Below the pieces are notes generated by a model that made no database searches, was not told the origin of the DNA, and was given only the letters and a program-made list of their open reading frames with translations. A program made the translations under genes and the position numbers. From contig WTWZ01000013.1 of assembly GCA_009773765.1 (NCBI GenBank), positions 43,431 to 107,430 of the forward strand: 64,000 bases of DNA. The letters are read 5' to 3'. Source of the DNA: Prolixibacteraceae bacterium. GTDB lineage: Bacteria; Bacteroidota; Bacteroidia; Bacteroidales; Prolixibacteraceae. Positions 32,955 through 60,324 of this stretch are shown piece by piece. Position 1 is the stretch's first letter. Each line of letters opens with the position of its first letter.

Positions 32955-33084
32955 TAGCCCCCTCTTACTCCCCCGAAGGGGAGAATTGGAGAAGTGTTAG
33001 ACTAATTGATTATCTTCCAAACATAAAATTTTCTTTCTTATTTGAGGCACACTCCTCCCCTTCGGGGAGGCCGGGAGGGGCTTT
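32955..33084. repeat. Pair of REP-like palindromes at the 3' end of cysS
   Basis: The left member (32955-32990) reads tagccccctcttactccccc then gaaggggag. The right member (33052-33084) reads cctccccttcggggaggccg then ggaggggctt. The outer ends are inverted copies of agccccc. The right member overlaps the last codons of cysS and extends its frame. The pair is about 130 bases end to end, like a short version of the 451-base unit in ileS. Confidence 0.75.
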
Positions 33085-35772: not shown

Positions 35773-38700
35773 TCAGTCTTCCGCACGTTTAACTAATATC
35801 CGTGCGAACAACCCTTTGTCAATTTCAACCTCCCTGGCATCATTATCATTCAGATTATCAACCAGTTCTAATTGATTAGCCAAAGTTTGCGCGCAAATAT
35901 AATCTTTATAATTTAAAATTGCTTTATTAAATTCTTCGCCTTTATCAATTCTTAAGGTTATACGGTCGGTAACTTCAAAGTTACTTTCCTTTCTGATATT
36001 TTGTATTTTATTAATGAACTCGCGGGCAAATCCTTCATCTTTAAGCTCATCGGTAACATTAATATCAAGCGCCAGAGTTAATTGCCCTTCTGAAGCAACT
36101 GTCCATCCCGGAATATCTTCAGTATGTATTTCAACATCTTCAGGTTTGATTATCACCTTTTCGTTACCTGTATTAATTTCAAACTGCCCTGAATTTTCCA
36201 GTTCCGCTATTTCCTTTTGCCCGAATTTGCCAATTGCACCTGCAATTTCTTTCATCAGCTTTCCGTACTTCGGCCCTAAAACTTTAAAATCGGGTTTTAT
36301 TTTCTTTTTAATTATGTCGGTGGTATCGGTTAAAAATTCAACTTCCTTAACATTCACCTCGGTTAAAACGATATTCTTTATCGCTTCAAATTGCTCCCTG
36401 AAACGTTGGTTCAGCACAGGAACAATAATTTTTGCCAGAGGCTGGCGCACCTTTAGTTTTTCTTTCCGGCGCAAGGCAAGAATCATTGACGACGCTTTTT
36501 GGGCAATGTTCATTTTTTCTTCCAAATCTTTGTCAACCAGATTTTCGTTATACAATGGAAAACCGGCAAGGTGAACACTTTGGACGACCTCTTTTTGTGA
36601 TACTTTATTCAGATCGGTATAAAGCAAGTCGGCATAAAAGGGGGCAATTGGCGCCATTAATTTTGCCACAGTTTCCAAACAGGTATATAAAGTTTGATAG
36701 GCAGAAATTTTGTCGTTGGTAAATTCGCCGCCCCAGTATCTTTTACGGCTCAAACGCACAAACCAGTTGCTTAAATTCTCTGTAACAAACTCCGAAATTG
36801 CACGTCCTGCCCGGGTAGGTTCGTAATTCTCGTAACACCAGCCAACTTCCTTCACCAGCGAATTGAGCAGCGAAATTATCCACCGGTCAATTTCAGGACG
36901 CTGTTCAACCGGTATTTCCTTTTCGGCAAACCGGAATCCATCGACATTGGCATACAGCGCGAAAAAGTTGTAAGTATTGTAAAGCGTTCCAAAGAATTTT
37001 CGTTTCACCTCTTCAACACCTGAAATATCGAATTTAAGATTATCCCAGGGTTGCGAATTGGTAATCATGTACCAACGTAGCGGGTCGGAACCATATTCTT
37101 CGATGGTTTGAAAAGGATCAACAGCGTTGCCCAACCGTTTCGACATTTTATTGCCGTTTTTATCGAGTACCAGTCCGTTCGAAATGATGTTTTTGAAGGC
37201 GACAGAAGGTGTCATTACCATTTTCCCGGATTCATCCCATTCCGGTTTACCAATCATAGTAGCAATTGAGTGTAGTGTGAAAAACCAACCCCTTGTCTGA
37301 TCTACTCCTTCAGCGATAAAATCGGCAGGAAATAACAAAGCCCCAACCCCAACCCTTCCCCCAAGGGGAAGGGAGTTTAGGACAGTGGTTATTTCACTGA
37401 GTACTCCTTCTATATCTTGGAAAATCCTTTCGTTAGAAAATCTTAATATTTTGAAACCTAATTCATTTAGAATGTCTGTTCGTTGTTCATCTGAAACCTG
37501 AACCTCAGGTAAAGAATGATAACCACCATCTACCTCTATGATTAATTGTTTTTCAAGACAAACAAAATCAGCAATAAACTGGTCGATAATATGTTGCCTT
37601 CTGAATTTATACCCTTCAAGTTTCTTACCCCTTAAATTTTTCCAAAGAAAAATTTCAGCCTCCGTTGGATTTTCTTTTTGTTTTAAAGCCAGCTCCTTCA
37701 ATAAATTATAACTCGAATTCCGTGCAGTCTGCCACTTCGGAGCACTTCCTGCCCCTCCCCCATGGGGGGAGGCTGGGAGGGGGCTTTCAAACGGATAATG
37801 ATGCTGTGCGTAAGGCATTGCACCTGAATCGAACCAAACATCAATTAAATCAGGTTCGCGGAACATTTTCTGTCCCGATGGCGAAACCAGCACAACATTG
37901 TCAACAAAGGGTTTGTGGAGGTCAATTTTATCATAATTTTCTTTTGAATTGCTTCCAACTTCAAATCCTTTATATGGATTATCGGTCATAAAACCAATCT
38001 TCATTGCTTTGTCAATTTCAGTCATTAATTCTTCAGTTGAACCGATGCAGATTTCTTCAGTGCCATCTTCTGTTCTCCAGATGGGCAGCGGCGTTCCCCA
38101 GTATCGCGAACGGCTCAGGTTCCAGTCAACCAGGTTTTCGAGCCAGTTGCCAAACCTGCCTGTCCCGGTGGATTGTGGTTTCCAGTTGATGGTGTTGTTC
38201 AATTCCACCATTTTATCTTTAACGGCAGTTGTTTTGATAAACCACGAATCGAGCGGGTAATATAAAATGGGTTTGTCGGTACGCCAGCAATGAGGATAAC
38301 TGTGAACGTGTTTTTCAATTCGAAAAGCTTTGTTCTCTGATTTTAGCATTACAACAATGTCAATATCAACAGTCGAGGCATCATCTTCGAGTTTATCGTC
38401 GTACTCATTTTTTACCGACCTGCCGGCAAATTCGTGATACTTTTCAACATTGACATATTTTTCTATAAAACCTTTATCAAGATTGGCAGTTGGGTAAAAC
38501 CTGCCTTTTCTGTCAACCAGCGCCTGTGTTTTACCATCAGCATCTTCAACAATTAAGGGAGAAATTCCGTTTTGTTTGGCCACACGGTCATCATCAGCGC
38601 CAAAAGTTGGCGCGATATGAACAATCCCGGTTCCGTCTTCGATGGTAACAAAATCGCCGGTTATAACTTCAAAAGCCCTTCCTTTGGGTTTTACCCATTC

Positions 38701-39681
38701 AATAAGTTGTTCGTACTGAACACCTTTAAGTACTTCCCCGCTGTATTCGGCCAGAATCAGATAGGGAATATTTTTATCGCCGGTTTTGTAATCTTCGAAT
38801 GATAAGTTGTCATTTTTCAGACTAAAATAAACCGGGGCCAAATCTTTTGCCAGGATTACTGTAACCGGCAGCCCGGTGTACGGATTGAAAGATTTGACTT
38901 TTACATATTTAATTGCAGGCCCAACGCAAAGCGCTGTATTCGAAGGTAATGTCCACGGAGTGGTTGTCCAGGCCAGAAAATACAAATCAGTATCAACATC
39001 TTTATAAAGAAACTCCGATTTTTCGTTTCTGATAACTTTGAACTGCGCAACTGCCGTTGTATCTTTTACGTCGCGGTAGCAACCCGGCTGGTTTAGTTCG
39101 TGCGAACTTAATCCTGTTCCTGCAGCAGGAGAATAGGGTTGAATTGTATAACCCTTGTACAGCAAACCTTTGGAATAAATTTGTTTCAGCAGCCACCACA
39201 CGGTTTCAATGTAACGGTTGTCGTAAGTTACATACGGGTCGTCCATGTTTACCCAATAACCCATAATGCGGGTAAGTTCTTCCCACTCTCGGGTGTATTT
39301 CATCACCTCGGTACGACAGGCGTTATTGTAATCTTCAACCGAAATCTTTTTGCCGATATCGTCTTTGGTAATATTCATCATTTTCTCCACTGCCAGTTCA
39401 ACGGGCAAACCGTGCGTGTCCCAGCCGGCCTTGCGGTGCACGCGAAAACCTTTCATGGTTTTGTATCGGCAAAAAATATCTTTAATGGCACGGGCCATCA
39501 CGTGGTGGATTCCGGGTATTCCGTTGGCTGAAGGCGGGCCTTCGTAAAACACAAAAGTGGGGTGACCTTCGCGGGTAGAGATACTTTTGTGAAAAGTATC
39601 ATCTTCCTGCCATCTTTTCAATACTTCCTTATTGATTTGCGACAAGTCTAATTGCTTGTATTCCTGAAACTTATTATACAT
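35773..39681 (-). CDS. ileS: Isoleucyl-tRNA synthetase with an in-frame DUF559 nuclease insertion
   Basis: A 1302-residue class I synthetase, about 150 residues longer than expected. Normal parts: [20 protein letters not shown] (HIGH region), an editing CP1 domain, [20 protein letters not shown], then after the insert [34 protein letters not shown] (KMSKS) and a C-terminal anticodon-binding domain. Residues about 632-782 are foreign: repeat-encoded [11 protein letters not shown], a complete DUF559 domain ([43 protein letters not shown]) and repeat-encoded [11 protein letters not shown]. The frame stays open throughout. No second ileS is in the window, so this copy probably works with the insert in a surface loop near the catalytic domain. 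Confidence 0.93.
   Translation of the reverse strand: [1302 protein letters not shown]
37337..37787 (-). mobile_element. 451-bp palindrome-ended unit carrying a DUF559 nuclease domain, inside ileS
   Basis: Bounded by AAAGCCCC at 37337 and GGGGCTTT at 37787, which are inverted copies of each other, each next to a longer palindrome (37345-37376 with ttcccccaaggggaaggg; 37752-37772 with cctcccccatggggggagg). Between them the minus strand encodes DUF559, a Vsr-like PD-(D/E)XK fold: IADF and IIEVDGGYH hold the expected Asp, Glu and Asp. No ATG opens the nuclease, so it is translated only as part of IleRS or from an alternative start. The same repeat ends occur elsewhere in this window without a nuclease. 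Confidence 0.8.
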
Positions 39682-39746
39682 CGGATGTGATTCTGAACCG
39701 TTTTAAAAAAAGTATGCAAATATAGGAATTTTTTCAGGGGCGAATA
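39594..39746. repeat. Direct repeat, copy A: ileS 5' end and promoter
   Basis: This stretch (first 30 codons of ileS, its leader and promoter) matches 40677-40830 in the same orientation, about 85% by hand alignment. The two copies bracket the PIN toxin-like cassette. Confidence 0.8.
39717..39724 (-). promoter_or_regulatory. -7 box of ileS
   Basis: Minus-strand TATATTTG, a full TAnnTTTG match 36 bases before the ileS start. The same box is kept in the duplicated ileS 5' fragment at 40802-40809. Confidence 0.5.
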
Positions 39747-39852
39747 TTGTGCTTTTCCTTTTATTTCGTTGTCAGCAACTTCCGAAATATTGGGACGAGA
39801 TTAGCAACTTGGCAGCATACAAAAAAACGACATAATCAATCACTTTTTAAAT

Positions 39853-39864: not shown

Positions 39865-40323
39865 ATGAAATTTTATGTTGACACATCAGTCTGGGGAGGG
39901 TTTGAGGACAGGGAGTTTGCCGACTGGACAATTCCCTTCTTTAACCAGGCCCGACAAGGCAGGTTCGCCATTGTATTGTCTGATGTAACAATTGGTGAAC
40001 TTGAAAAAGCTCCTGAGATTATCAGGGATTTACCTGCAACAATTCCGCCTGAATTCTTAGAATTAGTTAGCATTACAAGCGAACACATTGAACTTGCCGA
40101 CAAATATGTTCAGGAAGGTGCGTTGTCACCAAAGTTTCATTCAGATGCACAACACATTGCCATTTCAAGCATACTTAAAGTCGACAGTTTAGTAAGTTGG
40201 AATTTTAAGCACATGGTAAACTTCTTTCGCATCAGACAATACAACTCAATCAATTTAAAATTTGGTTATTCAATTATTGATATTAGAACACCAAAGGAGG
40301 TAACTTATGGAGAACAAGAATAA
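39865..40323 (+). CDS. PIN-domain protein, VapC-like
   Basis: A 152-residue putative ribonuclease. The N-terminal MKFYVDTSVWGG supplies the first PIN Asp, TIGELEKAP the Glu, and FHSDAQHIAISS plus VSWNFKHM the third acidic and following residues. PIN proteins of this kind cleave RNA as VapC toxins. Two small genes follow in the same direction; the first starts inside the end of this gene, as toxin-antitoxin partners often do, although here the toxin-like gene comes first. The cassette is bracketed by duplicated ileS 5' ends, so it was acquired. Confidence 0.8.
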   Translation: MKFYVDTSVWGGFEDREFADWTIPFFNQARQGRFAIVLSDVTIGELEKAPEIIRDLPATIPPEFLELVSITSEHIELADKYVQEGALSPKFHSDAQHIAISSILKVDSLVSWNFKHMVNFFRIRQYNSINLKFGYSIIDIRTPKEVTYGEQE

Positions 40324-40657: not shown

Positions 40658-40676
40658 ACAGTAGGTTCCTTTTAAG

Positions 40677-40830
40677 TAAAGTCTCGTCTTCCTGCCACCG
40701 TCTCAACACTTCCTTGTTGATTTGCGAAAGGTCCAATTGCTTGTATTCCTGAAACTTATTACTCATAAAATGCAATTCTGAACAGTTTTTAAAAAAGTAT
40801 GCAAATATAGAAATTTTTTCAGGGCGGAAA
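40677..40830 (-). pseudogene. Displaced ileS 5' fragment (direct repeat, copy B)
   Basis: On the minus strand from 40766 this reads [20 protein letters not shown] followed by LRRWQEDET, nearly the same as the IleRS N-terminus, and then loses similarity. Upstream bases keep the ileS promoter box (40802-40809). It is a remnant of an ileS 5' end on the far side of the PIN cassette. Confidence 0.85.
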
Positions 40831-40876
40831 TTATTTACTTTTGAGTTTCAATCCAATATTACTTCTCTAATCATTT

Positions 40877-41471: not shown

Positions 41472-43808
41472 TTATTGATTATTATTCTCCTTATTTAATT
41501 TTTTAATTACCAATTTTTGTCTTCTGCATGATGGACACCCTGTTCCATTGGATCTTTTATAAATAGATGCTATCCACTCATGCCCTTTAATGCAACACCA
41601 CCAAACTTTTTTATGAGAACCTGGAACAACATCATTTGGAGTAAGATTTTCATTCTTTGAAGAATGCCATTCAGCAGCAAGGATAGGATTCACAAATGCT
41701 AAACAATTTTCTTCACAAACTTTTTTATTTGAACAATATGGACAATTATGACCTCTTACGCGGTCTCCAACACTTGCCTGCCACTCATGCCCTTTTGGAC
41801 ATATCCACCAGACTTTTAATTTTGTTCCTGTTGATACCATTAATGGTGTTAACGAAACATTCATAGTTGGATGCCATTCATTTGCTATTAAAGGATATCT
41901 TGCGCTAAAGGAACTATCTGTAGTAAATTTTTGACCAGAACAATACGGGCAACCATTACCACGATCTCTACTATTAATTGTTGCCTTCCAATTATGTCCA
42001 TTAATGCACTTCCACCATACTTTTAACTTTGAACCTGCAGAAACATCCATTGGAGTTAACTCTCCATTTTTATTAAAATCCCAATCCTTTGATAAAATTG
42101 TATTTTTAAATTCTAAACTCTTTTCAAAAAAAGGACTTGGTAGCTGATAGTAAAGACTTTGAAATTCTTTTTCTGCAATATAATCTTGTACATTTAAGTA
42201 TTCGTTCAATATGGTTAAAACCGAAGAATTTTTAATAGTATTTATTAGTAATCTAATTAGTGATTGTATTATGCTTAAACTAATCTCACCCTTTTTAATA
42301 AAAATATCCTTTTCACCGATTTTTCTTAATCCTTTCTCTCGAATTCGGATCAGTTCGATTCCATTTTGATTAAGTTTATTATTTTTCAATAATTCAAAGT
42401 CATATTTATCTTTATGATAGAAATAACTATCTACTTCTATTCCTAAACTGACAGAAGGCAAATAAATATCAATTTCATAACCTCCAACTTTTATTCTGTG
42501 TTCTACTTCAATGAATAGCTTTTTTAATTCAGAATAAATTCGTAATTCAATAATTGAAGTTGATGAATTACAAACAGGGCATCGTCTTCCTTTTGCTCTG
42601 TTTGAAATACTTGACCTCCATTCATGCCCTCTTTTGCATTGCCACCAAACAATTTTACTCGAATATGGAGTATAATCAGTAGGATTTTTACCATCATTTT
42701 TAACAGTATGCCATTCTTTACAAAGTTCAGGATTAGCAGTTTCAAGATTTCGTTCATATGAAGCTCTTTTACCTGAACAATACGGACATCCAGTACCTAC
42801 AACTCGGTGTGCAATAGCTGTTTTATATTCATGTCCATATAGACAATGCCACCATACTTTTTTATTCGAATTGGGAAAACAATCCACTGGTCTTAGTGTG
42901 CCATTTCTTGACTGATGCCATTCCTTTGCAATATTTGGAAATCTTGCATTTAGATTATTTTCATTAGTAATACGACTGTCCGTACAATAAGGACATCTTC
43001 TTATTCTAATCCTACTGCTTACAGATTGCTGCCACTCATGTCCATTATTACATAACCACCAAGCATTATATTTTGAACCAAAAGTAAAATTATATGGAGT
43101 CTTTTCCCCATTTTTCGTCGGATGCCACTCTTTCACAATTTCAGGCTCTTTTGTAGCAATACAATTTGATAATACAACTTTTGATCCGCTACATACTGGA
43201 CATCCTCTTCCATTCACCCTATTTTTAACTGTCGCCTCCCATTCATGGTCCTCTCCTTTGGGGCATTTCCACCACACTTTTTTATGAGATCCTGCTGACA
43301 TATCATATGGTGTTATTTCAGCATTTTTTGACGGATGCCATTCTTTTAATAGTTCAGGATTTACCCTTGCAAGACTTCGTTCAGGTATAAGTTTTTTCCC
43401 ACTACAATAAGGACATCCAGAGCCTTTAGAACGGTCAGAAATTTTAGATTCATACTCATGACCATATCTACATTTCCACCATATTTTTTTATTTGAATGA
43501 GTTAGAAAATTCTCTGATTTTAGGTTTCCATTTTTGAATGGATGCCATTCTTGTGAAATTTATGGGGAATTTTTACTTAGGTTGTTTTCAACGGATGATC
43601 GAATCCCTGAGCAATACGGACAATTTTTTGCTTTAACTCTATTATAAACAATCTGTTGCCATTCATGCCCATTTTTACATTTCCACCAAGCATTGTATTT
43701 TGATCCTTTACTTACTTCAAATGGGGTTTTACAACCGTTTTTAGTTGGATGCCATTCTTTTAATAAATCAGGATTATATTTTGAAAGTAGCAATTTTTTG
43801 CTGGGCAT
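41472..43808 (-). pseudogene. Nine-unit zinc-ribbon protein with central PD-(D/E)XK nuclease, one in-frame stop
   Basis: If the TAA at 43560-43562 is read through, this is one 778-residue protein. It holds nine units of about 66 residues with the pattern EWHP..NG...P...S..KVWW.C..GHEW......R..G.GCPxC, each a likely zinc ribbon (PF14311/DUF4379 style). Six units precede and three follow a nuclease domain at about residues 420-510 (GGYEIDIYLP, LGIEVDSYFYH, GIELIRIREKGL), a Vsr/DUF559-like fold. The stop falls between units 1 and 2 in KNSP*ISQEWHP, a one-base change from PKI or PEI. ATG 43301 could restart units 3-9 with the nuclease. The domain set suggests nucleic-acid binding and cutting; the biological role is unknown. 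Confidence 0.75.
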
Positions 43809-48198: not shown

Positions 48199-49962
48199 AT
48201 GAACAAAAAGTTATTTCCCGGAATAATTGTGCTTATGGGAATTTCTATTCTCGGAATTATTGTTGTTCAACTGGTTTGGATGAACAACGCCATTCGAGTT
48301 AAAAACGAATTGTTCAACCGATCGGTAAACGAGGCGCTGAACAATACTGTGAATAAACTCGAAGATATCCAGCATTTTAGCGTGGTAAACCATCTTGTGT
48401 TTGATAAACAGGCACAATGGAAAAACCTTACAGGAGAAGAGATTGACATTTCTCAAATCCCACCGCCGCCACCGCCGCCAAACACATTTTCTCAACCCGG
48501 TTCGCTTAAAAAACCCACTGGGACTGTCCGTGCCATCAGGAAAATGAAACCCGGCGAAAGGAGTTCGCGCATTGAAATAAAAGTTGAACCGGGGAAAAGC
48601 AAACAAGGTTCTTATAGTTTCGATTTTAATTCTGAAGCGCGGAACGACAGCGATATTTTTGTTATGAATGAAAATTCAGTTTCCGGCAATGCAGTATTTA
48701 TTTTTAACAATGACACTATTATCAGCAACTTGGATTCGCTTTACAAAATAAGCATGGTACAAATCGATTCGATGTTGAACAAACTTGATACTTTTACCAT
48801 TCTTAAACACGATATTTCGCAACGTGCCGAGCTAAAGGCAAACCAGTTAAAACGAATGGCCAGCCAGGTGGTGGCCGAGATTTCGGAATGGGATGTAAAC
48901 CGCATTGACAATGAATTAATCCACAATGTTTTAACCGAAGAGCTCGAAAACCGGAACATCCCGGTTGAGTTTGAATTTGGGGTTTTGAAAGACAGCATTT
49001 TCATCAGTAAAAACGAAACAGGTACCGATTCGTTAAAACTCAGTCAGTCCGAATTTCAGGTGAATCTATACCCAAACGATATATTCCAGAAAAATATAAC
49101 GCTGGCGCTGTGGTTTCCAGGGCGCGAAAGTTACATTTACCGCTCGCTAAACTGGTTGCTAATAGCGTCGTTCCTGTTTTCGCTGATTATTTTAACCACA
49201 TTTGGATTCAGCGTTTTCTACATTCTTCGCCAGAAAAAGATATCAGAAATGAAATCGGATTTTATCAACAACATGACCCACGAATTTAAAACGCCAATTG
49301 CCACCATATCGGTCGCAACAGATTCTATTCTCAACGAAAAGGTAGTGAACAATCCCGAAAAAATCAGGTATTTTACCGGGATGATTAAGAAGGAAAACAA
49401 CCGCATGAACCGTCAGGTTGAAGATATCCTCACCATTTCGCGCCTTGACCGGAAAGATTTCGAATTTAAATGGGAAGCAGTTGACGTTCACGAACTTATC
49501 AAAGATGCGGCGTTGGGAATTTCCCTTCAAATTGAAAAACGCGAAGGTAAAATAAAGATGGAGCTGAATGCGGTTAATCCGTTAATCATTACCGATAAAA
49601 TTCACGGGACCAACATTTTTTATAATTTGTTCGACAATGCCATTAAATATTCAGTAAATCCGCCTGAAATAAAAATTACCTCAACAAACAAATCGCGGGG
49701 AGTTTTGATTGCGGTTGAAGACAATGGAATTGGAATGACAAAAACTGTTCAGAGTAAAATATTTGAGCGTTTTTACAGGCAAACCAGCGGTAACATTCAT
49801 AATGTAAAAGGTTTTGGTTTGGGGTTGAACTACGTAAAAGCCGTTCTGGAAGCCAACCGGGGAACAATTTCGGTGTACAGCGAACCCGGAAAAGGAAGCC
49901 GGTTTGAGGTGTTTTTGCCCAAGAGCCTCTCCCCTGCCCTCTCCAAAATGGAGAGGGAGTAA
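48199..49962 (+). CDS. Sensor histidine kinase with repeat-encoded C-terminus
   Basis: A 587-residue membrane kinase. One helix (about 7-28), a periplasmic domain of about 285 residues with a proline run near 88-94, a second helix (about 317-343), then the HisKA dimerisation domain (FINNMTHEFKTPIATIS; phospho-acceptor H361) and the HATPase domain (IFYNLFDNAIKYSV, VEDNGIGMTKTVQ, GFGLGLNYVKAVLE). The true domain should end at FEVFLPK; the last 12 residues (SLSPALSKMERE) come from a REP-like repeat, which also supplies the stop. It pairs with the response regulator that follows 10 bases later. The signal is unknown. Confidence 0.93.
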   Translation: MNKKLFPGIIVLMGISILGIIVVQLVWMNNAIRVKNELFNRSVNEALNNTVNKLEDIQHFSVVNHLVFDKQAQWKNLTGEEIDISQIPPPPPPPNTFSQPGSLKKPTGTVRAIRKMKPGERSSRIEIKVEPGKSKQGSYSFDFNSEARNDSDIFVMNENSVSGNAVFIFNNDTIISNLDSLYKISMVQIDSMLNKLDTFTILKHDISQRAELKANQLKRMASQVVAEISEWDVNRIDNELIHNVLTEELENRNIPVEFEFGVLKDSIFISKNETGTDSLKLSQSEFQVNLYPNDIFQKNITLALWFPGRESYIYRSLNWLLIASFLFSLIILTTFGFSVFYILRQKKISEMKSDFINNMTHEFKTPIATISVATDSILNEKVVNNPEKIRYFTGMIKKENNRMNRQVEDILTISRLDRKDFEFKWEAVDVHELIKDAALGISLQIEKREGKIKMELNAVNPLIITDKIHGTNIFYNLFDNAIKYSVNPPEIKITSTNKSRGVLIAVEDNGIGMTKTVQSKIFERFYRQTSGNIHNVKGFGLGLNYVKAVLEANRGTISVYSEPGKGSRFEVFLPKSLSPALSKMERE

Positions 49963-51403: not shown

Positions 51404-51466
51404 ATCCCAACCTTCCCCAAAGGAGAAATAAGCCCCATCCCAACCTTCCCCTAATGGGAAGGGGAA
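51399..51466. repeat. Two REP-like repeats after the response regulator fragment
   Basis: Two tandem units with gcctcatcccaaccttcccc and gccccatcccaaccttcccc, each followed by a short complementary part (aaaggag; taatgggaagggg). They belong to the same GC-rich family. They mark the original 3' end of the regulator gene. Confidence 0.7.
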
Positions 51467-57490: not shown

Positions 57491-57525
57491 AAGCCCCCTC
57501 TGACTCCCCCGAGGGGGGAGAATTG
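57491..57525. repeat. REP-like repeat after the 56987 gene
   Basis: aagccccctctgactccccc followed by gaggggggagaattg. It is nearly the same as the left members at 32955 and 60221. Confidence 0.8.
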
Positions 57526-57552: not shown

Positions 57553-58068
57553 CTATTTTTGAGTACTGGTAAGCAGTTCAATAATTACACCCAGGTTTGG
57601 CATGTCAACATAAGAATAACTTCCGCCTGTAAAATCACCTTTTTGTACCAGTTTTCCGCCTTTGTTTTCAAGGTATGCGATGTTTTGTTCCATACCTTCA
57701 ACACCAAATGCGATGTGATGAAATCCTTCTCCATGTTTTTTCAGGTGTTTGTACCAGGTACTCTTTTTACCAACCGGCTCAATCAATTCGATGGTCAGGT
57801 TTTCGAGCCTGAAAAATGCCAGTTTTGCACGTGCTTCGGTTGGTTTACCTTCAAATTGGGTATTTGCCTTTTCATATTCGTCCGTAATAATTACCTCCGG
57901 AACTTTATCGAATCCCAGAATTGCCGCCCACTTTTTCGATGCTTCATCGATGTCATTCACTACCAAACCGATTTGGGTAATTTGTCCCTTCCCAAATTTT
58001 TCCTGTGCTCCTGTGGTTAAAACTGTAACCATAAAAATCGCGATAAATACAACTTGTAACTTTTTCAT
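57553..58068 (-). CDS. Secreted VOC-family (glyoxalase-like) protein
   Basis: A 171-residue protein with a signal peptide (VVFIAIFMVTVLTTGAQ) and one vicinal-oxygen-chelate domain: ITQIGLVVNDIDEASKKWAA, LENLTIELIEPVG, GEGFHHIAFGVEGME and the terminal GVIIELL. The longer frame upstream of 58068 translates a REP repeat and the end of the next gene, so the inner start is right. VOC proteins with an NDID/HHIAF/IELL pattern include methylmalonyl-CoA epimerase-like enzymes; being exported, this one must have another substrate. It follows the GH127 gene on the same strand. Confidence 0.85.
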   Translation of the reverse strand: MKKLQVVFIAIFMVTVLTTGAQEKFGKGQITQIGLVVNDIDEASKKWAAILGFDKVPEVIITDEYEKANTQFEGKPTEARAKLAFFRLENLTIELIEPVGKKSTWYKHLKKHGEGFHHIAFGVEGMEQNIAYLENKGGKLVQKGDFTGGSYSYVDMPNLGVIIELLTSTQK

Positions 58069-58119
58069 CTTATTAGCTTTTTTTTTTAAAACTTCGATTT
58101 TACTATTACTATTTCTTAC

Positions 58120-58150
58120 TCCTCCCCTCCGGGGAGGCCGGGAGGGGCTA
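58120..58150. repeat. REP-like repeat that supplies the GH127 stop codon
   Basis: ctcctcccctccggggaggc then cgggaggggcta. On the minus strand its first three bases, TAG of TAGCCCC, form the stop codon of the GH127 gene. Confidence 0.8.
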
Positions 58151-60085
58151 CCTTTTAAACCAAACCTCCATTTCGCCCAATCCACGATGGTTCCATGCAT
58201 AATAAGGAATCAAGGTTAAACTATCCGATTCCAGTTTTACAATCCCTTGCAAAAGAGCAGAATCGTATTTTGGTGTAAATTTAGTTTGTTCATTAACTAC
58301 TTTCTCCAAAACCCCGGCTGGATTGTCAACCTGTTCGGCACAGTAAACAATCGGGCCACGCTCTATTGCAACTTTTCCAATAATTTCCTTTATGTTTTCG
58401 TTTGGAATAACTTTTTTTGTTTCCATTGGCAAAACAAGTTCAACCAAATCGCCATCATTCCACGATTTATCAAGCGAAATATATCCGTTAACCACTGTAA
58501 AATCATTAGGTTCGTTATTGATGAAAAGCCTGACTTCTTTTGACGCTTCATTAATATAGGAATATAAATCAGAGGGAACAGGTTTGTTTATAGCCCATCC
58601 CGGAACTCTTATTTTGAAATTAAATTTTACAGGGTTTTCCGCAGATATCTTGAATTTAACATTTCCTTCCCACGGGTATTTGGTTTCCTGTTCAATTTGG
58701 AATTTATGGTTTTTCATTTCAAAACTTGTTTTACTTGCAGCGAAGAGGTTGGCAAAAATTTCGCTGCCATTTTGTGCATACATGTAATTTGGCACTGCCG
58801 GAATAAACCTTGAAAGGTTGGAAGGGCAGCACGAGCAATCGAACCAGGGTTTTCTTTCGGTAGCGCCCTGATTGAAAGGGTCTTTGCCATCGAATTCCAA
58901 AACATTAGGATAAAAGAAAGTATTTCCTTCGAACGAAATTCCGGGAAGTACGGCATTATAAAGTGTCCGTTCCAAAACATCGATGTATTTACTGTCCCCG
59001 CTCATTAAAAACATGCGTTGGTTCCAGAATACATTGGCAATGGCAGCACAGGTTTCGTTGTATGCCCGGTTTGGTAACTGGTAGTTTTCGCCAAAAGCTT
59101 CACCCTCGTACATGGCCCCAATTCCACCGGTGATGTAATATTTTTTGCCCACCACATTTTCCCAGATTTTATTAATGGCCTTAATGTATTCCTGATTTCC
59201 GGTTAAAGCTGCAACGTCGGCCATTCCGGAGTACATATACACCGCCCGTACCGCGTGCCCCACTGCTTCGTCCTGTTCGATCACCGGTTTATGATCCTGA
59301 AAGTAAGAACCGTTTTCGTATTGATTTGTACTTGCATAATTACGTTTATCCGATTTTCCGCGGTCGTCGAGAAAAAATTGGGCCAAACCGAGATATTTTT
59401 TTTCTCCGGTGGTACGGTAAAGTTTTGTCAGCCCGATTTCAATTTCCTGATGGCCGGGGGCATCGTGGCGTTTACCGGGACCGTAAACCGAATTTATCAG
59501 TTCAGCATTTTTAATGGCGATATCCAGAAAATTGGTTTTCCCGGTGGCGTTGAAATGCGCAACCGCAGCTTCGTACATGTGCCCCACATTATACAGTTCG
59601 TGGCTGTGGTTTCGTTCTTCTACCCAACGCTCTTTTCCTTCGCGTTCTGTCATCGCCGAATCGCCTTTTATGGTGCGGATGGTATAAAGATATCCATCGT
59701 CTTCCTGTGCAGCGGAAATTTTAAAAATCAAATCGTCAAGGTATTTATCCAGTTTCGGGTCGTATTTTTGCTGAAGCGAATAGGCAGCTCCTTCCATTAT
59801 TTTGAACACATCTGAATCGTTGAACCTGATCCCTTCAAAAGTGCCGGCAACTAATCCCCCGGCAACTTCGAAATTGGCAATACGATGCGTTTCCTCACAT
59901 TTCTGAAAACAGTACGGAATTGTTACATCGCGGTTAGTGGCGATGCGTTTCGACCAGAAATTATCGTTTAGTTCAACGTTTAGCGACGAAACCGGCTGAA
60001 TTTGATAATCGTTTTTTTGTTTTTCTTTTTGTTTGCAGCTTGAAATCAAAATGATAAAAAAGAAAATGCAGATCAGGTTTTTCAT
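58148..60085 (-). CDS. GH127 beta-L-arabinofuranosidase family lipoprotein
   Basis: A 645-residue glycoside hydrolase (former DUF1680). Lipoprotein signal ICIFFFIILISSCKQ, then an (alpha/alpha)6 barrel with IPYCFQKCEETHRIANFEVA, ITGGIGAMYEGEAFGENYQL, NETCAAIANVFWNQRMFLM (zinc-ligand Glu) and FDCSCCPSNLSRFIPAV (the Cys set including the nucleophile Cys as in HypBA1), and C-terminal beta domains. It removes beta-linked L-arabinofuranose from plant-type glycans, probably in the periplasm. Its stop codon comes from a REP-like repeat. The VOC gene follows. Confidence 0.9.
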   Translation of the reverse strand: MKNLICIFFFIILISSCKQKEKQKNDYQIQPVSSLNVELNDNFWSKRIATNRDVTIPYCFQKCEETHRIANFEVAGGLVAGTFEGIRFNDSDVFKIMEGAAYSLQQKYDPKLDKYLDDLIFKISAAQEDDGYLYTIRTIKGDSAMTEREGKERWVEERNHSHELYNVGHMYEAAVAHFNATGKTNFLDIAIKNAELINSVYGPGKRHDAPGHQEIEIGLTKLYRTTGEKKYLGLAQFFLDDRGKSDKRNYASTNQYENGSYFQDHKPVIEQDEAVGHAVRAVYMYSGMADVAALTGNQEYIKAINKIWENVVGKKYYITGGIGAMYEGEAFGENYQLPNRAYNETCAAIANVFWNQRMFLMSGDSKYIDVLERTLYNAVLPGISFEGNTFFYPNVLEFDGKDPFNQGATERKPWFDCSCCPSNLSRFIPAVPNYMYAQNGSEIFANLFAASKTSFEMKNHKFQIEQETKYPWEGNVKFKISAENPVKFNFKIRVPGWAINKPVPSDLYSYINEASKEVRLFINNEPNDFTVVNGYISLDKSWNDGDLVELVLPMETKKVIPNENIKEIIGKVAIERGPIVYCAEQVDNPAGVLEKVVNEQTKFTPKYDSALLQGIVKLESDSLTLIPYYAWNHRGLGEMEVWFKR

Positions 60086-60220: not shown

Positions 60221-60324
60221 CAGCCCCCTTCTTATTCCCCCAACGGGGGAAGGTTAAGAGCCATACAGTTTTTTTTTCATTTTCCCTTCTCCTCCCCCTC
60301 GGGGGAGGCCGGGAGGGGGCTTTA
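60221..60324. repeat. Pair of REP-like palindromes at the metG stop codon
   Basis: Left member cagcccccttcttattcccc then caacggggga; right member cctccccctcgggggaggcc then gggagggggcttta. The outer ends are inverted copies of agccccc, the pair is about 100 bases long, and the right end begins directly at the metG TAA. It looks like the ileS unit with the nuclease removed. Confidence 0.8.

What the first reader, a model, noticed from the sequence alone, without database searches (positions are those of the whole stretch)
37337..37787. A palindrome-ended unit carrying a DUF559 nuclease is inserted in frame inside isoleucyl-tRNA synthetase
Seen directly: the ileS frame is open across a 451-base insert that begins AAAGCCCC and ends GGGGCTTT, has a GC-rich palindrome at each end and encodes a full DUF559 domain (IADF, IIEVDGGYH). 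The insert separates HYPFE from FPADFIAEG, which are close together in ordinary IleRS. Known: DUF559 is a Vsr-like PD-(D/E)XK fold, normally a free-standing protein; Rickettsia palindromic elements show that palindromes can insert in frame in essential genes. Inference: this is a small mobile element whose ends keep the host frame open, using the host gene for expression; the nuclease may promote its spread, for example by cutting empty sites.
Basis: partly seen in the sequence, partly recalled or inferred. Interest (0 to 1): 0.93.

Follow-up and report, generated by a model that had tools for sequence, protein, structure and literature searches.

The report
Nuclease element riding inside essential proteins
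A small, apparently mobile DNA element that encodes a DNA-cutting enzyme and ends in sequences expected to fold into three-stranded DNA sits, without breaking the reading frame, inside an enzyme needed for protein synthesis, and related elements sit inside many other core genes.

Summary
Confirmed, and larger than reported. The window's only ileS carries an in-frame unit of about 451 bp with a complete DUF559 nuclease. Among 37 same-genus genomes the site is empty, full or remnant, so this is a gain/loss element, not an IleRS domain. Related units lie in frame in IleRS (two sites), ValRS, LeuRS, MetRS, RecG, MetH, UvrA, PurL and others; 80 of 81 testable embedded copies keep one frame through both junctions. 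The nuclease is under purifying selection; by profile and fold it is closest to NGO0050 and the EDxHD homing endonuclease I-Bth0305I. Recognised ends are hairpins followed by a G-rich tail mirroring the purine arm (96 of 140 perfect; shuffles at most 27): a class II intrastrand-triplex motif. In 80 Bacteroidota loci these point outward (46:2 and 46:2). Such motifs also cluster beside DUF559 genes in 13 of 18 loci from other phyla, and one lies near E. coli ycjD. A 2015 survey of such motifs found no mobility function near them; DUF559 is a candidate. Most likely: a splicing-free mobile element read through as a loop domain, spread by nuclease-provoked copying, decaying to solo ends. Mobility is inferred by comparison; cutting and triplex recognition are untested.

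The parts
35773..39681 (-). ileS, isoleucyl-tRNA synthetase, 1302 aa with the insert; only ileS match found in its genome
37337..37787 (-). inserted element, about 451 bp, in frame with ileS; boundaries good to 1-3 nt
37378..37737 (-). DUF559 nuclease core (EDxHD/Vsr-like); Pfam match proper 37378-37695, plus N-terminal helix
37341..37374 (-). 3' end of the element (gene direction): hairpin CCCTTCCCC/GGGGAAGGG plus mirror tail GGGTTGGGG, tail outward
37753..37783 (+). 5' end of the element (gene direction), inverted: hairpin CCTCCCCC/GGGGGAGG plus mirror tail, tail outward
60221..60322 (.). DUF559-less mini-element: two inverted triplex-type ends (60224-60252 -, 60290-60319 +), abutting the metG stop codon
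32956..33084 (.). DUF559-less mini-element across the cysS 3' end (stem 32968-32983 and triplex-type end 33053-33080 +); cysS reads into it ([10 protein letters not shown]...) and stops inside
49925..49957 (-). solo triplex-type end
51433..51462 (-). solo triplex-type end
57494..57521 (-). solo triplex-type end, about 30 bp past the stop of the 57553-58200 (-) frame
58120..58147 (+). solo triplex-type end, next to the stop codon of the 58148-60085 (-) frame

Best explanation
This is a mobile element that needs no splicing. One open frame encodes a Vsr-like/EDxHD nuclease (DUF559) between inverted ends that can fold as intrastrand triplexes. It sits in variable loops of core proteins; its ends read as Pro/Ser/Gly-rich linkers, so the host protein is made with the nuclease as an extra domain and the host promoter expresses it. 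SHOWN by comparison: in-frame placement, repeated occupation of the same sites, empty/full/remnant states, inverted triplex-type ends, purifying selection on the nuclease, homology to a homing endonuclease. INFERRED: that the loops are at the surface, that the fused protein is made, that the nuclease cuts or nicks empty alleles or structured ends and repair copies the element in, and that deletion between the ends leaves one or two hairpins, still in frame; such solo ends scatter in the genome.
For: Same-genus panel of 37: IleRS site 5 full, 25 empty, 5 longer loops, 2 cut; ValRS site 6 full, 23 empty, 5 short remnants, 3 without a call (G029's frame-broken full copy, two lacking data). G018 ValRS is an in-frame internal-deletion form of the full copy in its near sister G021. 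Lone gain: G029 valS left flank is 92-95% identical to ten sister species whose site is empty, right flank 88-92% over 617 bp for eight of them, while its element is at most about 80% like the nearest others. 80 of 81 embedded copies share one frame. Host-site labels need 32 changes on the 137-element tree versus 94.9 shuffled; starred branches force at least 3 changes of the IleRS label; a urocanase copy nests among IleRS copies. In 4 of 106 same-site pairs element dS is below host dS after Bonferroni, none above. IleRS hosts L096/L104 are 91% alike, their elements 59%. Ends: 96 of 140 perfect mirror versus at most 27 in 500 shuffles; orientation 46:2 and 46:2; left and right arms of one element resemble each other more than in within-site shuffles (0 of 1000). 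Nuclease: PDB 3r3p E=2.4e-7, 3hrl E=2.7e-30; fold agrees.
Against: Most same-site pairs show no significant difference between element and host divergence (of 106: 6 lower, 6 higher at P<0.01 before correction), so movement is rare or old. G029's copy is frame-broken in C/G runs of its ends, perhaps sequencing error. One ileS copy (G022) has lost the GGYH active-site stretch. A stem at both ends was found for 78 of 133 elements, and for 3 of 21 free-standing ones, in a 130-nt search; a wider look found more. No target-site duplication was seen; filled sites lack a few residues of the empty loop. No cutting, triplex binding or transposition was tested. Holder et al. did not find stable triplex in vivo for the E. 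coli motif (PMC4666352).
Confidence: 0.72

Rival explanations
1. Domesticated insert: the nuclease entered a few core genes long ago, is inherited vertically, and is kept for a host function such as T:G mismatch repair or defence; patchiness is loss.
For: Elements mostly track host divergence; purifying selection (dN/dS 0.05-0.22 in 12 of 13 pairs with finite dS; the near-identical pair L005/L006 gave 1.02; 3 of 16 pairs saturated); RecG copies form one clade; a Caulobacter DUF559 protein is proposed to be Vsr-like (PMC12907096, passages).
Against: Lone gain in G029 among empty sisters; four pairs with the element much less diverged than its host; unlike elements in very similar IleRS hosts; solo ends and mini-elements elsewhere.
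Confidence: 0.17
2. The triplex-ended units are moved by some other enzyme in trans and DUF559 is cargo or a helper.
For: Solo ends and DUF559-less mini-elements exist; no transposition by DUF559 has been shown.
Against: Ends cluster beside DUF559 in the three sets: 97 of 123 motifs in 8.3% of bases (80 Bacteroidota loci), 26 of 27 in 29.7% (26 free-standing loci), 30 of 63 in 10.8% (18 loci of other phyla). I saw no other gene between the ends in the Bacteroidota elements read. Palindrome counts follow DUF559 counts over 61 genomes (Spearman 0.72, confounded by kinship; outside the genus 6 of 8 versus 2 of 16 genomes, P=0.005).
Confidence: 0.13
3. The insert never reaches the mature protein: it is removed as an intein or intron, or skipped by the ribosome.
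For: The two ends are partly complementary, so mRNA could bring the host parts together; a review credits self-splicing with letting homing endonucleases invade conserved genes (PMC3943268, passages).
Against: No splicing domain among the Pfam matches of the 1302-aa protein, no Rfam match at E<=1 over 37000-38100, no conserved junction residues seen by eye; frame kept through both junctions in 80 of 81, which splicing or skipping would not require.
Confidence: 0.04
4. Assembly artefact.
For: Copies sit at contig ends in some draft genomes (own valS copy).
Against: Same junctions in many assemblies, in single-contig genomes and in named isolates.
Confidence: 0.01

Closest known systems
EDxHD homing endonucleases (I-Bth0305I)
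   Same: Nuclease homologous by profile (E=2.4e-7) and fold (TM 0.80-0.81 by target); occupies conserved genes with empty alleles in relatives
   Different: Not in a self-splicing intron or intein; stays in the host frame; triplex-type inverted ends; the embedded part is one domain of about 120 aa, without the long multi-domain form described for I-Bth0305I (PMC3943268, passages)
Intrastrand triplex motifs: TM-ECO / BoxC / PIT (Holder et al. 2015)
   Same: Same class II architecture; a motif of this type lies about 170 bp downstream of E. coli ycjD (DUF559)
   Different: Described in E. coli as intergenic repeats with no mobility activity found nearby; here they are paired inverted ends of a nuclease unit, also inside genes
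Rickettsia palindromic elements (recalled)
   Same: Palindromic units read in frame inside core genes
   Different: No nuclease gene, other phylum (recalled; not compared)
REP sequences with RAYT, and IS200/IS605 (recalled)
   Same: Hairpin repeats tied to one small nuclease gene
   Different: Y1 HUH enzyme, not DUF559; not known as in-frame passengers (recalled)
Vsr / DUF559 free-standing nucleases (Caulobacter VsrA, NGO0050)
   Same: Same domain
   Different: Free-standing; repair role proposed for VsrA (PMC12907096, passages)

Membership tests
EDxHD homing endonucleases | Sequence/fold homology of the catalytic domain with conserved acidic and His residues | tested here: met
EDxHD homing endonucleases | Cleaves the empty allele and drives its own copying | not testable with these tools
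   only comparative hints:
EDxHD homing endonucleases | Encoded in a self-splicing intron/intein or as a free-standing gene | tested here: not met
   in frame in a host gene, no splicing domain, no Rfam match; free-standing relatives exist
Intein | Splicing domain and junction nucleophiles | tested here: not met
   junctions by eye
Class II intrastrand triplex motif | Stem 6-15 nt, short loops, third strand mirroring the purine arm | tested here: met
   window ends match the mirror over 8 and 9 positions without mismatch; the scanner, preferring longer stems, reports 9-10 positions with 2 mismatches; size limits from PMC4666352; the A:A / A:T rule is recalled
Class II intrastrand triplex motif | Folds as triplex in vitro | not testable with these tools
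   shown by CD/NMR for the E. coli motif by others, not for these
Rickettsia palindromic elements | Sequence kinship to RPE families | not tested
   analogy only, recalled
Insertion sequence / MITE | Inverted ends and deletion derivatives | tested here: met
   deletion form in G018
Insertion sequence / MITE | Target-site duplication and a known transposase | tested here: not met
   no duplication seen by eye at valS or ileS empty/full comparisons; Pfam finds only DUF559 in the insert

The most novel reading that the evidence does not exclude
DUF559 nucleases and class II intrastrand-triplex repeats form one cross-phylum mobile-element system: the nuclease recognises the triplex-folding end, and orphan repeats such as E. 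coli BoxC/PIT and those of Neisseria and cyanobacteria are its solo ends. In Bacteroidota it has gone furthest, living as a read-through domain inside essential proteins: a homing-type element that replaces splicing by in-frame tolerance.
Probability: 0.6. Interest if true: 0.97.

Novelty: categorically new. Interest (0 to 1): 0.93.

Why it matters
A review credits self-splicing with letting homing endonucleases live in conserved coding sequence (PMC3943268, passages); these seem to do without. [quoted passage not shown] coli ones (PMC4666352), gain a candidate enzyme that can be tested in laboratory E. coli (ycjD). It would explain extra-long aminoacyl-tRNA synthetases, RecG and MetH proteins in Bacteroidota, and points to natural sites where core enzymes tolerate a whole inserted domain.

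Tried and rejected
Assembly join: rejected. Intein/intron: no support. Simple palindrome: replaced by hairpin plus mirror tail; a direct-copy tail fits worse (mirror better 99, equal 25, worse 6 of 130 asymmetric arms). G-quadruplex reading: not excluded here; it does not predict the position-by-position mirror. Model of IleRS 1-930 with insert: mean pLDDT 60.7, too poor to judge fit; element alone 84.4. dS test for general horizontal spread: mixed. Viral contigs: 45 loci, most distant; I scanned 31 of them, 6 motifs in 268 kb, 3 loci near the nuclease. Phages: 3 weak records. E. coli: the ycjD stretch is at least 80% present in 3333 of 5426 genomes; in two strains without it a larger segment differs, so no clean empty site was read. 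Free-standing DUF559 of the window's genus fall in other clades.

Full report
OBSERVATION. The window's ileS (35773-39681, minus strand, 1302 aa) is open across an insert of about 451 bp (37337-37787) that encodes a full DUF559 domain. A 167-aa piece of IleRS finds one match in the window's genome and one in each of the other 36 same-genus genomes. A second DUF559 unit of the same genome (2 found) lies in frame in valS, at a contig end that breaks in the repeat.

SAME SITE, THREE STATES. At the IleRS site, among 37 genomes: 5 full, 25 empty (PFEWKENFKDVFPADF and like), 5 longer loops, 2 cut off. Longer loops were sorted by length; three (L065, L066, L079) look by eye like palindrome remnants, though none scores in the triplex scanner; G025 and G035 are uncertain. 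At the ValRS site: 6 full, 23 empty, 5 short remnants, 3 not called, one of them G029, whose full copy is frame-broken; 3 of the 5 remnants still score as triplex motifs (L269, L270, L274). G018 and G021 are near sisters; G018 has both ends and a short in-frame leftover where G021 has the full element. In G029 the left valS flank matches ten sister species with an empty site at 92-95% (last 300 bp: best 96.7%), the right flank eight of them at 88-92% over 617 bp (first 120 bp: best 89%), but its element is at most about 80% identical to any other found. The simplest reading is one arrival at an already used site.

BREADTH. Hosts by Pfam or by the same flanking motif: IleRS at two sites, LeuRS, ValRS, MetRS, RecG (16; Pfam run on one), MetH, UvrA, PurL, urocanase, CinA, HsdR, DegT-type aminotransferases, and fusions at the ends of guanylate kinase, GcpE and an alpha-2-macroglobulin protein. 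In a draw of 395 Bacteroidota genomes 73 had a match at E<=1e-30, and 46 of the 93 matches lay in a frame of 300 codons or more (my count; hosts not identified). Of 81 distinct embedded copies with host homology on both sides (22 IleRS, 16 RecG, 15 LeuRS, 13 MetH, 11 ValRS, 2 MetRS, 2 CinA), 80 have upstream host, element and downstream host in one frame; 75 are open over the whole aligned host, and in the other 5 the nearest stops are over 200 codons from the element. The exception is G029. Loci were chosen by element similarity, not by frame.

HISTORY. On a tree of 137 elements (few columns, many forks open) host-site labels need 32 changes against 94.9 shuffled (0 of 200 as low). RecG copies form one starred clade; the IleRS label needs 8 changes, at least 3 by starred branches; a urocanase copy sits among IleRS copies. 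Of 106 same-site pairs with host dS up to 2, the element is less diverged in 6 and more in 6 at P<0.01; after Bonferroni 4 lower remain (L136/L167, L122/L127, L155/L170, L011/L012) and none higher. So inheritance looks mostly vertical with some transfers. Element dN/dS was 0.05-0.22 in 12 of 13 pairs with finite dS; the near-identical pair L005/L006 gave 1.02 and 3 of 16 were saturated: the nuclease is kept as a protein.

NUCLEASE. The embedded-element profile finds 3hrl (E=2.7e-30) and 3r3p (I-Bth0305I, E=2.4e-7) and nothing else below 0.3. The model (pLDDT 84.4) ranks the same two first (3hrl is N. gonorrhoeae NGO0050), with E. coli Vsr further down. E28, D57, E68, D70 and H74 are invariant in 17 embedded copies, though at least one copy outside that alignment (G022 ileS) has lost the active-site loop. 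A Caulobacter DUF559 protein is responsible for DNA-damage signalling in cells lacking a cytosine methyltransferase (PMC12907096, passages).

ENDS. Where stems were recognised, each end is C/T arm, short loop, G/A arm, one to three bases (often TT), then a G-rich tail that mirrors the purine arm: in ends scoring at least 0.85, opposite G stands G (692 of 702) and opposite A stands A (120) or T (48) of 179. That is the pairing code (recalled) of a class II intrastrand triplex. Of 140 usable ends 96 are perfect mirrors; 500 partner shuffles average 16.5 and never exceed 27. A further set of 42 palindromes from 31 genomes, found by stem alone, has 26 tails scoring at least 0.85 and 20 perfect, against 2.7% and 0.7% in controls. 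Stems at both ends were recognised in 78 of 133 elements. In the 80 Bacteroidota loci the motifs point outward, 46:2 on the left and 46:2 on the right; 97 of 123 motifs lie in the 8.3% of bases nearest the element, 54 of 80 loci having one. Of 26 free-standing Bacteroidales loci 16 have one near.

BEYOND BACTEROIDOTA. Of 43 plasmid-collection records with a YcjD-like protein I fetched 18 chosen for variety. 13 of 18 have a motif within 400 bp and 30 of 63 motifs fall in 10.8% of bases (binomial P=2e-13; arrays make motifs non-independent). Misses: both Picosynechococcus, one Pseudanabaena, Methylobacterium, Novosphingobium. Orientation there is only weakly outward (8:5 and 9:6). In Pseudanabaena galeata a DUF559 lies in frame in a 1622-aa protein in a BREX cluster, between such motifs. 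About 170 bp downstream of E. coli MG1655 ycjD lies a motif that fits a BoxC-type pattern without mismatch and the triplex scanner with one; I did not check it against the published list of 23 sites. Holder et al. (PMC4666352: abstract, passages, sections 15 and 17, first part of 20) showed triplex folding in vitro for the E. coli motif, did not support stable triplex in vivo, and wrote that they never found mobility activities around it.

WHAT IS KNOWN. Searches of an open-licence library (one search was for the nuclease family) found 14 papers naming DUF559; judged by titles, starts of abstracts and passages of two of them, none describes in-frame elements or triplex ends. [quoted passage not shown] Subscription papers and preprints were not searched.

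MECHANISM AND LIMITS. I favour read-through translation, nuclease-provoked copying into empty sites or structured ends, and decay to solo ends. Only the comparative parts are shown. Why the same loops recur (target recognition or tolerance alone) is open: ValRS, LeuRS and second-site IleRS inserts all lie just before the editing-domain threonine-rich stretch, which fits either.

Noticed in passing
window 39584-39756 and 40669-40842: The 5' end of ileS and its upstream are repeated (83% over 175 bp) on the far side of a gene with a weak PIN match (39865-40323, E=0.0011, under the cut-off): looks like a partial duplication around a toxin-antitoxin-like insertion.
   Followed up: partly
window 41472-43301 (-): 609-aa frame with seven DUF4379 treble-clef zinc-finger units and, in the middle, a weak match to the REase_MTES_1575 nuclease family (E=3e-7, under the curated cut-off).
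   Followed up: partly
window 60221-60322 and 32956-33084: Two DUF559-less mini-elements sit at the 3' ends of metG and cysS; with ileS, three synthetase genes of this window carry such ends.
   Followed up: partly
L010/L267 (G029 valS): This valS seems to hold two further solo repeat insertions in other loops besides the full element; frames break in C/G runs.
   Followed up: partly
L051:3-935: Frame with a long array of in-frame repeat-encoded units (PSKGGE...) before a DUF559, with a type ISP restriction-protein match.
   Followed up: no
L230, L231, L236, L247: Some solo repeats seem to have a second hairpin between the purine arm and the mirror tail, as if the linker itself folds (by eye).
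   Followed up: no
L313, L325, L034: DUF559 units recur inside or beside BREX / DNA methyltransferase genes.
   Followed up: no
L124: RecG insert on a contig labelled Limnohabitans (Pseudomonadota); its element pairs with Flavobacterium on the tree, so probably a misbinned contig.
   Followed up: no
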